From: Pseudomonadota bacterium
Lineage (GTDB): Bacteria; Bdellovibrionota_C; UBA2361; OMIW01
NCBI GenBank assembly: GCA_900299205.1
Contig: OMIW01000062.1
Coordinates: 1-64,000, forward strand
Length of the DNA: 64,000 bases
Direction: 5' to 3'
Part shown: positions 6,228-49,371 of the stretch, in pieces
Numbering within the stretch: position 1 is the first letter of the stretch
Layout of the letters: each line of letters begins with the position of its first letter
Position numbers and translations under genes: made by a program
The notes under the pieces: generated by a model
What the model saw: the letters and a program-made list of their open reading frames with translations, nothing else
Databases searched by the model: none
Told to the model about the DNA's origin: nothing

Positions 6228-6902
6228 ATGAGGACCTTAAGAAGATTAACTGCCAGCATTATCGCGAGCTTTGAGGGAGTCGTTGGTCAACTTGAGAACC
6301 ACGAGGCGGTCGTTACCGCCGCTATTCGAGATGCAGAGCAAGCAGCGGGGCGGGCAAAGGCCCAATTGGGCCGGGTAAAACGAGACGGCGGTGCACTTCA
6401 AAAACGGATGACCGAACTTCGGGAGCAGACAGTCCTTTGGGAGGATCGCGCTAAGAGGAGTCGGGGCATAGATGAGGAAAAGGCTCTCGAGTGCGTCAGG
6501 CGTCGACAGAGAAGCCTGGCACAGGCACAAAAACTTGAGGAGCAACATCGAGAGCACCTTAAGCTCGAACGTCAACTTGAGTCCGACCTCCTCGCGGTTG
6601 AAGAAAAGCTCAACACCCTTCGGCAACAACGAAACATGATGCGCACCCGGGAGAGCCGAGCCGAAGCGATGAGGCTGACAAGTGCAATCGACTCCTCCGC
6701 CATCGGTCATATCGATGAGATCTTCGAGCGGTGGGAGGCGCGAGTCGCCTCGGCCGAGGAACAGAGCTCAGTAGCTGATACTTCTGAGCTCGACGAACTC
6801 GCTGAGGGATTCGCCACCGATGAAGAACGCCACCTCCTCCTCGGCTTGCTCGATACGATTGCGCCGAGGGGAACGACCTCTGCGGGTGATTCAGATCAAT
6901 AG
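6228..6902 (+). CDS. PspA/IM30 (ESCRT-III-like) family membrane-stress protein
   Basis: A 224-residue, almost wholly alpha-helical protein with long charged heptad stretches from residue ~20 to ~180. It opens with a short amphipathic helix (MRTLRRLTASIIASFEGVV), then the paired coiled-coil hairpin of PspA/IM30/Vipp1 proteins, including the ...QRNMMRTRESRAEAMR turn in the distal helices. Family members polymerise on the inner membrane and protect it during envelope stress. The start is well supported by AAGGAG upstream of the ATG at 6228. It is followed on the same strand by a multi-pass membrane protein and preceded divergently by a likely regulator, as in other phage-shock loci, although no PspB/PspC/PspF is present. 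The acidic C-terminal tail (residues ~185-224) is not conserved. Confidence 0.75.
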   Translation: MRTLRRLTASIIASFEGVVGQLENHEAVVTAAIRDAEQAAGRAKAQLGRVKRDGGALQKRMTELREQTVLWEDRAKRSRGIDEEKALECVRRRQRSLAQAQKLEEQHREHLKLERQLESDLLAVEEKLNTLRQQRNMMRTRESRAEAMRLTSAIDSSAIGHIDEIFERWEARVASAEEQSSVADTSELDELAEGFATDEERHLLLGLLDTIAPRGTTSAGDSDQ

Positions 6903-18519: not shown

Positions 18520-20628
18520 TCAAACGAGCAAGGCCCGCTGAATGCGCGTTATCTTATCACGAAGCTCGGCAGCACGCTCATACTCTCTCTTTCCTGCCGC
18601 TTCGAGCATCTCTTTTCTGAGCCCCTCCACCACTTTCTGCTGAGCCTGAGGATCTGCGGGGGGTGGCTCATCGAGCGTCACGATCTCTCCCGTCTCAGGG
18701 TCGATCAGCTCCTCAATCACCGTGGTGAGGGCCCCCTCAAGCCCCCGCCGCGCGGATTGCGGCACGATGCCGTGCTCCGCGTTATACGCCGCCTGAATTG
18801 TTCGTCTCCGCTCCGTTTCCCGAATTGCTCCCTTAATTGAATCGGTCTCCCGATCAGCGTACATGATCACCCGACCATGCACGTTTCTCGCTGCTCGTCC
18901 CATCGTTTGTATCAGGGACCGTTCGGAGCGAAGAAATCCCTCTTTATCTGCGTCGAGTATCGCGACAAGTTGAACTTCGACGAGATCAAGCCCTTCCCGC
19001 AGCAGATTGATCCCAACAAGGACATCAAAATCCCCCCGGCGCAGCCCCCGCAAAATCTCCACCCGCTCTACCGTATTTATATCGGCGTGCAGATAGCGAG
19101 AGCGGATCCCAACTCCCTGGAGGTACGTGGTGAGATCTTCAGCCATACGCTTGGTGAGAGTGGTGACAAGCACCCGCCCCCCGCGATCGACAACCTCTCG
19201 CGCCTCATTGAGGAGATCATCGACCTGATGAAGAGCTGGTCGCACAGAGACTTCTGGATCAAGCAACCCAGTCGGACGATTTATCTGCTCGACAACATGC
19301 GCTCCACTCTCCGACAGCTCAAAATCCGCTGGTGTCGCCGAGACAAAGACCACCTGACCAACCCGCTCCCAGAACTCTTCACCACTAAGAGGCCGATTAT
19401 CAAGCGCGGACGGGAGTCGAAAGCCGTAATCCACGAGGGTTTGCTTTCGCGCCCTATCGCCCCGATACATAGCACCAATCTGTGGCACCGTAACGTGGCT
19501 TTCATCGATAAAGAGGAGAAATCCTTTTGGAAAATAATCAAGAAGAGTCGATGGTGGAGTGCCCGGCTGTCGTTGATCGAGATGTCTGGAATAGTTCTCA
19601 ATCCCTGGGCAAAAACCTATCTCAAAGAGCAGCTCAAGATCATACAGCGTCCGCTGTTCGAGCCGTTGAGCCTCAAAATCCTTCCCCCCACTTCGCAGCT
19701 CCGCCAGTCGTATATCCAATTCCGCCCTGATGCTCTCAGCAGCCGCTATCACTTTCTCTCGAGCAGTGACAAAGTGACTGACCGGATAGACCGCGGTGCT
19801 CGCAAGCTTGCGGAGAACGACCCCCGATATACCATCAATCTGAGCAATCTCTTCGAGTTGATCTCCAAAAAAAATCAGTCGTATCGCGTGAGCGTCCTGA
19901 TCAGAGGGAAAGACATCTATCGTCTCCCCTCGAACCCGGAAAGTTCCCCGATAAAAATCATTATCAGAACGAACATACTGCATCTGGACGAGCTTCCTGA
20001 GCAGTTCCTTTCGGTTGATCCATTCCCCTTGCTCGAGGTAAAGCATCGCTTTAAAGTATTCTTCTGGGGCTCCGAGACCATATATGCAGCTCACACTCGC
20101 GACGATAATCACATCGGTGGACTCGAGCAACGCCTTGGTTGCCGCGTGCCGCATCTTATCAATCTCTTCATTAATAGCGCTGTCTTTCTCAATATAGGTA
20201 TCGGTCGATGGGATGTAAGCTTCGGGCTGGTAGTAGTCGTAGTAGCTCACGAAGTAGCGCACCTGATTATTCGGAAAGAACTCTCGAAACTCAGCGTAAA
20301 GCTGTGCTGCCAACGTTTTGTTCGGCGCGATAATCAGAGCAGGACGGGCTTGTTCACGGATGACATTCGCCATCGTAAAGGTTTTACCCGAACCGGTGAT
20401 GCCCCGTAATGTCTGGAACCGCACCCCAGCCGAAAGATCATCCGAGATCCGGCGAATCGCCTGCGGTTGATCTCCGCGAGGGGTATATGATGATTCCAGG
20501 AGAAAGGCCTCTTGGCGACGAACCGGAAGGGTAAACCCACCGTCTGTCAGTACTCGAGCATTACAATCGAACTGATTTGAAGGAAGGTGCTGACTAGAAC
20601 AGGTCGTTGAAGATGACTTTTTTTTCAC
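18520..20628 (-). CDS. uvrB: Excinuclease ABC subunit B
   Basis: UvrB, the damage-verifying helicase-like subunit of UvrABC nucleotide excision repair. Walker A GITGSGKT is at 76-83. The beta-hairpin region [20 protein letters not shown] is intact, as are [21 protein letters not shown] and the motif VI segment QTMGRAARN. The C-terminal UVR domain ([20 protein letters not shown]...) that contacts UvrC is present. Compared with E. coli there are ~35 extra residues at the N terminus; no later in-frame start before the GDQP motif was found, so the GTG at 20628 is kept although it has no clear Shine-Dalgarno. On the opposite strand a ~510-codon open frame is a mere shadow. Confidence 0.96.
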
Positions 20629-44938: not shown

Positions 44939-46135
44939 CTACTCGATGATTTCGGTAACAACCCCTGAGCCAACGGTTCTACCGCCCTCACGGATTGCGA
45001 ACCGAACTCCGCGCTCCATCGCGATTGGCTGAGCCAACTCGACATCTATGTTGATGTGATCCCCGGGCATAGCCATCTCTACCCCGTCCGGCAACTTGAT
45101 GCTACCTGTCACATCTGTTGTACGAAAATAAAACTGGGGTCTGTACCCTGAGAAGAACGGTTTATGACGTCCACCTTCTTCTTTCTTTAATATATAAGCC
45201 TCTGCTTTGAACTTGGTGTGAGGTTTGATCGAACCCGTCTTAGCTAAGACCTGGCCCCTCTCTATATCGTCGCGCTTCAATCCGCGAAGTAGACACCCGA
45301 CATTATCCCCAGCAAATCCCTCCTCCAGGGACTTGTTGAACATCTCCACACCCGTAACGGTGGTCTTCGTTGTAGCGCGTAGCCCTACAATCTCCACTTC
45401 TTCGCCGACCTTGATCTTACCGCGCTCGATACGACCTGTTGCGACAGTTCCTCTCCCAGCAATGGAGAACACATCTTCTACCGACATCAGGAATGACTTA
45501 TCCACTTCTCGCTCAGGAACAGGAATGTAGTCATCGATTGTCGATAGCAGCCTGTCAATGCAGCCTTTTCCGAGATCTCCCTCTTCGAGGTTAAGGGCCT
45601 TCAATGCGCTACCTCTAATAATAGGGGTGTCATCGCCCGGAAAATCATATTTATTCAGTAGATCACGTACCTCCATTTCTACGAGCTCAAGCAACTCTTC
45701 GTCGTCGACAATGTCAACCTTATTGAGAAACACAACGATTTTCGGGACTCCCACCTGTCGCGCTAGAAGGATGTGCTCCCGTGTCTGAGGCATAGGACCA
45801 TCGGCGGCACTCACAACTAAGATGGCCCCGTCCATTTGAGCAGCTCCAGTAATCATGTTCTTGACATAGTCAGCGTGACCAGGACAATCAACATGAGCGT
45901 AGTGTCGACCAGCGGTCTCGTACTCGACGTGAGCACTCGCGATAGTTACAGTCTTGGTCGCATCACGCACCGTTCCACCTTTCGCGATATCCGCATAGCT
46001 CTTCTCCTTAGCGAGAGCCTTCGAAGCTTGAACTTTAACAAGGGCGGCCGTGAGAGTCGTTTTGCCGTGATCGACATGGCCTATAGTTCCTACGTTCACA
46101 TGATCTTTTGTTCTTTCAAACTTTGCTTTTGACAT
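44939..46135 (-). CDS. tuf: Elongation factor Tu with variant switch I
   Basis: EF-Tu delivers aminoacyl-tRNA to the A site. P-loop GHVDHGKT (19-26), DCPGH (83-87), NKVD (138-141) and the tRNA-binding domain 2 and 3 motifs ([29 protein letters not shown]) are normal. Switch I is not: where nearly all bacteria have EEKARGITIN, this protein reads [10 protein letters not shown] (58-67), keeping only the Mg-coordinating Thr64 and the following Ile of the RGITI motif. I recall the same replacement in some planctomycete EF-Tu proteins. Length 398. It lies between fusA and rpsJ. Confidence 0.97.
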
Positions 46136-46229: not shown

Positions 46230-47228
46230 TTACTTTTTTATAATTCCTTCAGCAACATGATTCGGAACTGGCGCATAGTGATGGTATTCCATCGTAAAAG
46301 TGGCCCTACCTTGAGAACTTGACCGAAGATCGGTAGAGTAGCCAAACATTTCGGCCAACGGAACCTCTGCCTTGATAGCCTGCGCTCCTGAACGTGGCTC
46401 CATACCCAGAATCCGTGAGCGGCGCCGGTTTATATCCCCAACGATATTACTTACAAAGTCATCCGGACACACGACCTCTACTGACATAATTGGTTCAAGA
46501 AGCTGTGGCCCTGCCTTTCGACAAGCCTCCTTCACACACATCGAACCAGCTATCTTGAAAGCAATTTCGCTGGAGTCAACTTCATGGAAGCTACCAAAAT
46601 AGAGGACGACTTTGGTATCAATCACCGGGAAACCAGCCAATATCCCACCGCCGAGCGCTTCCTTAACACCCTTTTCAACAGCGGGAATGAATTCCTTCGG
46701 AATCACCCCTCCCTTTATCTCATCATGGAATTCGTTCCCCTTTCCAGCTTCAAGAGGACTAACCCTAAGGAATACATGGCCGAACTGCCCCTTACCGCCA
46801 GACTGTTTTGCATACTTAACTTCGTGCTCAACTTCTCGCGTTATTGTCTCCCGGTATGCTACTTGTGGCTTCCCTGCCTTAGTCTCAACCCCATACTCCC
46901 GGAATAGTCGCTGTTGAATGATATCAAGGTGTAATTCTCCCATCCCAGCGATAATCGTTTGGCCGGATTCCTCGTCCGTAAAAACCTTGAGCGACGGATC
47001 TTCTTTTGAGAGTTTCATCAAAGACAGACCCATTTTCTCCTCATCGGCCTTTGTTTTTGGCTCGATAGCTATGCTAATCACCGGGTCCGGCGCATGTATT
47101 GATTCAAGGAGTATTGGCGAACCTTCATCCGATAAAGTATCCCCTGTATAGGTTTCCTTAAGACCAACGGCTGCTCCAATATCTCCAGCCGAGAGTTCCT
47201 TAACCTCTTCTCTCTTGTCTGCATGCAT
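46230..47228 (-). CDS. fusA: Elongation factor G, C-terminal part (after frameshift)
   Basis: Encodes EF-G from the end of domain II to the C terminus: [38 protein letters not shown] (domain III), domain IV with [13 protein letters not shown] and [12 protein letters not shown], and domain V with [22 protein letters not shown]. In this frame coding-quality sequence continues 11 codons upstream of the Met ([11 protein letters not shown]) to just inside the N-terminal piece, so this is not an independent gene; it is the other half of fusA separated by a shift of reading frame at about 47257-47268. Confidence 0.93.
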
Positions 47229-47256
47229 TTTAACGATTCGACCGATACGCTCCCGC

Positions 47257-48336
47257 TTACCTGCGCGTATTCAAAACAGAAGTCCCTGCCGCAATGGTAC
47301 CTGAGTAAACGCGAAAGAACGTAAGACCTCCAACATATGGATCGCTTACTATCTTGAAAGCAAGCGCAGAAAAGGGCTCTGCTGCGTCTGCCTCTCTTAC
47401 TAGCTTTTCTACAAGCTCGGCTGGCTTATTCGCATCATCCGGAGATATACCCTGAACGGCAGGAATATCAAGCGGAGATGGGAGGTAATCAATAACAGCA
47501 TCAAGGAGCGGTTGTACGCCTTTATTCTTGAAAGCACTCCCACACAGAATTGGGAATATCTCCATGGCTAGAGTTCCCGTACGTAGGGCGGACATAATTT
47601 CAGACGCTGAAACCTCTCCCCCAGCCAGGTATTTTTCCATAATGGAATCATCCAGGTCGGCAACGGCCTCTACAAGCCGTTCTCGAGCCTTCATTGCCTG
47701 GTCCTTCAAATCAGAGGGAACATCTCGAATCTCAAACCGTGCCCCCTTAGTCTCTTCGAGATAAACGACTGCCTTCATGGTGAGCAGATCGATTACTCCT
47801 AGAAATTCAGATTCTGCTCCAATTGGAATCTGTATTGGGACGGCATTAGCGCCTAAGCGCTCTTTTATCGCCTGGACGCACTTCTCAAAGTTGGCGCCCA
47901 TCCGATCCATTTTATTCACAAAGCAAAAACGCGGGACCCGGAACTTGTTCGCTTGACGCCACACAGTCTCCGACTGGGGTTCGACGCCACTCACTCCATC
48001 AAATACAGCCACGGCGCCATCTAGAACGCGCAAACTTCTCTCGACTTCGATTGTGAAATCTACATGACCAGGGGTGTCGATAATATTTATGCGATGGGTT
48101 GGCTTATCCCCAAGCGACCCCGACCACTCGCAAGTAGTGGCAGCGGAGGTAATAGTAATCCCTCTCTCCTGCTCGAGCTCCATGTAATCCATGGTCGCTC
48201 CCCCTTCATGAACTTCCCCTATCTTGTAGTTCTTGCCAGTATAATAGAGAATGCGCTCTGTCGTAGTTGTTTTACCAGCATCAATATGAGCCATGATGCC
48301 TATATTTCGAGTTTTTGATAAATCAATTTTGGCCAC
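47257..48336 (-). CDS. fusA: Elongation factor G, N-terminal part (ends at frameshift stop)
   Basis: Encodes the EF-G GTPase domain and most of domain [10 protein letters not shown] (16-23), [11 protein letters not shown] (normal switch I), [28 protein letters not shown]. Translation stops at TAA (47257-47259) right after SVLNTRR, exactly where EF-G normally continues (K/R)GKRER(I/V)GRI. Family alignment by eye suggests two bases are missing in an AGG-T context, or one extra base. If joined the protein would be ~700 residues, the normal length. Either a sequencing or assembly error, a true mutation with a second EF-G elsewhere, or less likely recoding. Confidence 0.93.
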
Positions 48337-48463
48337 AGCTCATATCCTGAGAAAAACTATAAAAGCTACGTATGCGACCCTTGGTGGGATTCACAGAGCT
48401 TGAATTCGAGCGTTGAAGTTTTAAATACCTGCCTATACAACTACACTTCGATGATCACACGGA

Positions 48464-48937
48464 CTACCACCTGAAGTGGGCGAAAGCTTTGTTCGCCTCT
48501 GCCATTCTATGGGTGTCTTCTCGCTTCTTCACCGCAGCTCCGCGGTTATTACTTGCATCGATAAGTTCGTTTGCTAACCTATCTGCTAGGGTCCGTTCGC
48601 TCCTCGCATTTGCTGCTGTAATTAACCACCGAAGGGCCAAGGACTGAGCTCGCGCATTCCGAACATCCGTTGGCACTTGGTACGTTGCTCCCCCGACTCT
48701 GCGCGACCTGACTTCTACAACTGGGCGAATATTTCCAAGCGCACCAGTAAATACCTGAACGGGATCAGAACCCGGCAGCTTGTTAGCTATCCGATCCAAG
48801 GCCCCGTACAGCGCACGTTCTGCAACCCCTTTCTTACCGCTCTGCATTATTGCATTTACCGCTTTCGTAATGACGACATTACCAAATTTTGGGTCGGGTA
48901 GAACTTCGCGCGAGAAATCTCTCTTTTTCCTTGACAT
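48464..48937 (-). CDS. rpsG: 30S ribosomal protein S7
   Basis: S7 nucleates assembly of the 30S head and can repress the str operon. It opens [20 protein letters not shown], and has [18 protein letters not shown], the beta-hairpin [17 protein letters not shown], and [20 protein letters not shown] at the end. The Met at 48937 has AAGGAGC upstream; a longer frame is rejected. Length 157. Confidence 0.98.
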
Positions 48938-48999
48938 ATTTGCTCCTTGCCTGAGAACTCGTAATGAAATCAAACCTAGCTAATTCCCGGACAACTAGG

Positions 49000-49371
49000 C
49001 TACTTGGGGCGCTTAGCTCCGTATTTCGACCGAGCCTGACGGCGGTTCTGCACTCCGTGGGCTTCAAGCTTTCCGCGGATAATGTGATAGCGCACCCCAG
49101 GGAGATCCTTCACTCGTCCACCACGAATAAGAACCACCGAGTGCTCTTGAAGATTGTGACCTACTCCGGGGATATAACTAGTTACCTCCATCCCCGTCGT
49201 CAATCGAACTCTTGCGACTTTTCGAAGAGCCGAGTTAGGCTTCTTGGGAGTTTGAGTATAAACTCTCGTACAAACACCTCGCTTTTGAGGACATCCGACA
49301 AGCGCTGGAGATTTAGTCTTCCAGGCCTTAGCTACCCGACTCTTTCTAACGAGCTGATTTATTGTTGGCAT
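49000..49371 (-). CDS. rpsL: 30S ribosomal protein S12
   Basis: S12 governs decoding accuracy. It opens [12 protein letters not shown] and carries [11 protein letters not shown] (residues 41-51) and [13 protein letters not shown]. The two streptomycin-relevant lysines are wild type. Length 123. First gene of the str-S10-spc-alpha block, behind a ~350-nt leader. Confidence 0.98.

What the first reader, a model, noticed from the sequence alone, without database searches (positions are those of the whole stretch)
46230..48336. fusA (EF-G) is split by a frameshift in domain II
The N-terminal frame stops at TAA right after SVLNTRR; the next frame continues [19 protein letters not shown] without a break. 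The frames overlap for only ~12 nt (TGA in one, TAA in the other), so the shift must be at 47257-47268. Against the family pattern (N-S/T-x-K-G-K-R-E-R) two bases seem missing from an AGGGGT-like site, or one is extra. EF-G is essential unless a second copy exists. Options: assembly error, true pseudogene, or programmed +1 shift at AGG-TAA, which has the right stop-codon context but no clear upstream Shine-Dalgarno as in prfB.
Basis: partly seen in the sequence, partly recalled or inferred. Interest (0 to 1): 0.65.

Follow-up and report, generated by a model that had tools for sequence, protein, structure and literature searches.

The report
Broken fusA reading frame, likely artefact
The only copy of an essential protein-synthesis gene (EF-G) in this draft genome is two bases short in its middle; all relatives read through intact and the same draft has other, unrelated frame breaks, so this is most likely an error in the assembled sequence rather than a new way of decoding a gene.

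Summary
In detail: on the minus strand fusA is split into a 5' frame (48339-47257, ending SVLNTRR-TAA) and a 3' frame (47270-46230) that continues [19 protein letters not shown]. Together they match the EF-G model end to end. It is the only EF-G in this 206-contig, ~90% complete draft. All 33 other genomes of the class with a close match are open across the site, and the loop there has a fixed length (88 of 88 matches), so the window is two bases short. Recoding is unlikely: the site lacks the signals of this genome's own prfB +1 shift (AGGGGG-TAT-CTT-TGA-C), has no Shine-Dalgarno-like stretch, no unusual downstream structure and no conservation, and a +1 shift would give a loop one residue shorter than in any relative. 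The same assembly carries two more breaks in conserved genes (clpA, a hybrid histidine kinase) in ~151 kb compared, against none in ~156 kb of a better assembled relative. Best reading: an indel error in the draft consensus; less likely a recent mutation in some of the sampled cells. Raw reads were not available.

The parts
47257..48339 (-). 5' part of fusA: EF-G domain I and start of domain II, open frame ending at TAA 47257-47259; likely start GTG at 48336
   Evidence: TIGR00484 positions 4-345
46230..47270 (-). 3' part of fusA: rest of domain II, domains III-V, open frame 47270 to stop at 46230
   Evidence: TIGR00484 positions 345-688
47257..47270 (-). overlap of the two frames, containing the two-base-short site (reads ACGCGCAGGTAA on the minus strand)
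44939..46135 (-). tuf (EF-Tu), intact neighbour
48464..48973 (-). rpsG, intact neighbour upstream in the str operon
49000..49371 (-). rpsL, intact neighbour

Best explanation
fusA in the living organism is an ordinary, continuous EF-G gene; the draft consensus is two bases short at one codon of a domain II loop. Shown: the split, the single copy, intact relatives, the fixed loop length, other frame breaks in the same assembly. Inferred: that the missing bases are a sequencing, assembly or consensus artefact and not a mutation present in cells.
For: Only one EF-G in the genome and no variant copy of the DNA on another contig. In 34 matches from 33 other genomes of the class the frame is open across the site, and 88 of 88 loop matches have the same length, to which the window is two bases short (alignment). 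Purifying selection shows on both sides of the break. The same assembly has two more frame breaks: a ClpA gene in G000:C135 (L255 near 6575-6611; halves match TIGR02639 positions 2-412 and 414-733) and a hybrid histidine kinase in G000:C49 (L260 near 19300-19430, close to an A7 run). That is three sites in ~151 kb of homologous DNA against none in ~156 kb of relative G002 searched the other way. The three shifts are not all in the same direction and share no evident motif, as errors would. A survey of prokaryotic frame transitions expects singleton breaks with intact homologues to be sequencing errors rather than genuine indels (PMC3711429).
Against: No reads or coverage could be inspected. 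The fusA and clpA sites are not long homopolymers, and a two-base deletion is not the commonest error type (general knowledge). The genome is a fragmented draft (206 contigs, 89.75% complete), so a second EF-G in the missing part cannot be fully excluded. Breaks in clpA and the kinase could also be real mutations.
Confidence: 0.8

Rival explanations
1. A real, recent two-base deletion present in some of the sampled cells (strain variation or dying cells), picked up by the assembler.
For: Neither half has decayed, as a very recent event would give; two other genes in the genome are also broken.
Against: EF-G is essential by general knowledge and no second copy is held, so the deletion cannot be fixed unless bypassed.
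Confidence: 0.12
2. Translational recoding: a +1 shift at AGG-TAA joins the frames, making a one-residue-shorter EF-G.
For: The shift direction (+1) and a stop right after the shift codon fit the general layout of prfB. tRNA-Arg(CCU), which reads AGG, has one detected gene and could re-pair in part with GGU (inference). AGGU decoded as glycine, or frameshifting there, has been reported for cox1 of a protist genus that infects oysters (PMC5009743).
Against: No conservation in any relative; no internal Shine-Dalgarno, whereas prfB of this genome has the full motif; downstream folding no better than shuffled sequence; TAA is read by both release factors; AGG followed by T occurs in frame in intact rpoB and rpoC, and AGG-TAA occurs once more at the end of another long open frame among the stretches held; the product would be shorter in a loop of invariant length.
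Confidence: 0.06
3. EF-G made as two separate polypeptides that assemble.
For: The downstream frame has an ATG at 47228.
Against: The break lies inside domain II (PF03144/PF22042 are cut by it), and starting at that ATG would lose the conserved [11 protein letters not shown] stretch; not seen in any relative.
Confidence: 0.02

Closest known systems
Singleton frame breaks in conserved genes of draft genomes (sequencing or assembly indels; cf. singletons of PMC3711429 and the unconserved prfA 'pseudogenes' of PMC12421855)
   Same: One indel in an otherwise well conserved essential gene, found in one genome only, no stimulatory signals, homologues intact.
   Different: Nothing of substance; reads not seen.
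prfB (RF2) programmed +1 frameshift
   Same: Shift direction is +1 and a stop codon sits directly after the shift codon.
   Different: No AGGGGG Shine-Dalgarno-like element, no CTT slippery codon, TAAG instead of TGAC, mid-gene position, no conservation, no regulatory logic.

Membership tests
Bacterial EF-G (fusA, TIGR00484) | Two halves together cover the whole EF-G model | tested here: met
   positions 4-345 and 345-688 of 691; each half alone is below the curated cut-off of 659.4 bits.
Bacterial EF-G (fusA, TIGR00484) | One continuous reading frame | tested here: not met
   frame changes at 47257-47270.
prfB-type programmed +1 frameshift | Internal Shine-Dalgarno-like element about three bases upstream of the slippery codon | tested here: not met
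   upstream sequence GTTTTGAATACGCGC; prfB of the same genome has AGGGGGTATCTTTGAC.
prfB-type programmed +1 frameshift | CTTT slippery site followed by TGA (rarely TAA) | tested here: not met
   AGG-TAA-G; criteria from PMC12421855.
Programmed frameshift in general | Shift site conserved among relatives | tested here: not met
   33 other genomes open across the site; loop length invariant in 88 of 88.
Programmed frameshift in general | Full-length trans-frame product made in cells | not testable with these tools
   Needs mass spectrometry or ribosome profiling.
Assembly indel artefact | Reads disagree with the consensus | not testable with these tools
   No reads held.
Assembly indel artefact | Other unexplained frame breaks in the same assembly, more than in a comparable genome | tested here: met
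   clpA in C135 and a histidine kinase in C49; none in G002 over a similar length.

The most novel reading that the evidence does not exclude
A lineage-specific +1 recoding at AGG-UAA in the middle of fusA, in a bacterium whose translation tolerates frame breaks in several genes (fusA, clpA, a histidine kinase).
Probability: 0.05. Interest if true: 0.85.

Novelty: not a real feature. Interest (0 to 1): 0.1.

Why it matters
As an artefact it matters only for annotation: fusA would be called as two fragments or a pseudogene in this draft, and marker-gene pipelines may lose it. If recoding were real, an essential translation factor would depend on a mid-gene frameshift for its own synthesis, which would be remarkable; the evidence points the other way.

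Tried and rejected
A second EF-G or variant copy in the genome: none (the C28 match is weak, below the EF-G domain III cut-off, in a 608-aa frame). Same-species sequence elsewhere: the nearest held genomes are of the same order, 83% identical at best over the 3' half, and viral contigs gave nothing. Downstream hairpin stimulator: z-scores 0.0 to 1.4, no structure beyond chance. A -2 slip, which would give the right length: the tRNA reading AGG would have to re-pair on GCA with little complementarity (inference). AGGU as a general four-base codon: AGG-T occurs in frame in intact rpoB and rpoC. A shared motif among the three frame breaks: none seen. The weak window candidates listed other than fusA were judged to be neighbouring-gene or paralogue matches (at least one partner scores low), not breaks.

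Full report
Observation. On the minus strand of the window, the gene between rpsG (48464-48973) and tuf (44939-46135) is fusA. Its reading frame from the GTG at 48336 runs to ...[14 protein letters not shown] and stops at TAA 47257-47259. Another frame, open from 47270, reads ...[19 protein letters not shown] and runs to the stop at 46230. The two parts together cover the EF-G model TIGR00484 (4-345 and 345-688 of 691), each alone staying below the cut-off.

Copy number. The EF-G domain III family matches once above its cut-off in the window's genome; the second match (C28) is weak and sits in a 608-residue frame, the size of LepA or TypA (naming by size is inference). The DNA around the break occurs once in the assembly. 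The genome is a draft of 2.45 Mb in 206 contigs, 89.75% complete.

Relatives. No other genome of the same family is held; the nearest are of the same order. In 34 matches from 33 other genomes of the class the frame is open across the site, 559 residues or more. The window sequence aligns with the relatives as N-T-R-x-G-K-R-E-R, for example [23 protein letters not shown] in G002. In 88 of 88 loop matches among the fetched loci exactly six residues lie between the N and the following E-R/K. The window has five residues plus one base there, so it is two bases short. A +1 shift would restore the frame but leave the loop one residue shorter than in any relative.

Selection. With 23 relatives aligned, the window protein deviates from 2 of 271 otherwise invariant positions, within the range of the intact genes (0-8), and its identity to relatives is ordinary on both sides of the break. 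This is not a decaying pseudogene.

Recoding tests. The genome's own prfB (G000:C91, locus L240) carries the textbook +1 site, AGGGGG TAT CTT TGA C. The fusA site GTTTTGAATACGCGC-AGG-TAA-G has no Shine-Dalgarno-like element upstream, no CTT, and TAA instead of TGA. In a survey of 12,753 genomes the prfB stop was TGA in 98.6% and TAA in 1.4% of the 8,164 with the motif, with CTTT nearly universal (PMC12421855). The RNA downstream folds no better than shuffled sequence. AGG is not very rare in the window's long open frames (9.3 per thousand codons), and a tRNA-Arg(CCU) gene is present. AGG followed by T occurs in frame in intact rpoB and rpoC, so no general AGGU rule applies.

Assembly quality. 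About 649 kb of this genome were compared with proteins of G002 (about 1.1 Mb fetched) and of the other loci, covering about 151 kb of homologous DNA. Apart from fusA two clear frame breaks appeared. One is in a ClpA gene on C135 (L255, near 6575-6611), whose parts match TIGR02639 at 2-412 and 414-733. The other is in a hybrid histidine kinase on C49 (L260, near 19300-19430), close to a run of seven A. The reverse comparison, proteins of this genome against G002 DNA, covered about 156 kb and found none. The directions are not all the same (fusA +1, the other two -1 in effect) and no shared motif was seen. The other str and S10 operon genes compared in the window are in frame. The two sides of the comparison are not perfectly matched (more reference proteins were used for this genome than for G002), so the contrast is indicative, not a rate.

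Verdict. The simplest account of all this is an indel in the draft consensus. A survey of frame transitions in 1,106 genomes likewise expects single-genome breaks with intact homologues to be sequencing errors rather than genuine indels (PMC3711429), and the prfB survey treats unconserved prfA breaks with the same caution. What is not shown is the state of the reads; a real mutation in part of the population is possible, and recoding is a remote possibility.

Noticed in passing
L255:5313-7690 (G000:C135): A clpA gene in the same assembly is split by a frame change near 6575-6611; the halves cover TIGR02639 2-412 and 414-733.
   Followed up: yes
L260:18040-20000 (G000:C49): A hybrid histidine kinase is split between its dimerisation and ATPase parts, close to a run of seven A.
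   Followed up: partly
L023 (G011:C33, fusA): fusA of another draft genome of the same order has one in-frame TGA (ELKE*DAGEIG) in an otherwise intact frame; probably a point error, not studied.
   Followed up: partly
L240 (G000:C91:28650-29696, prfB): prfB of this genome carries the canonical programmed +1 frameshift site AGGGGGTATCTTTGAC.
   Followed up: yes
L024 and G008:C43:3527-4519: Relative G008 has two EF-G genes of similar identity to the query (72% and 69%).
   Followed up: no
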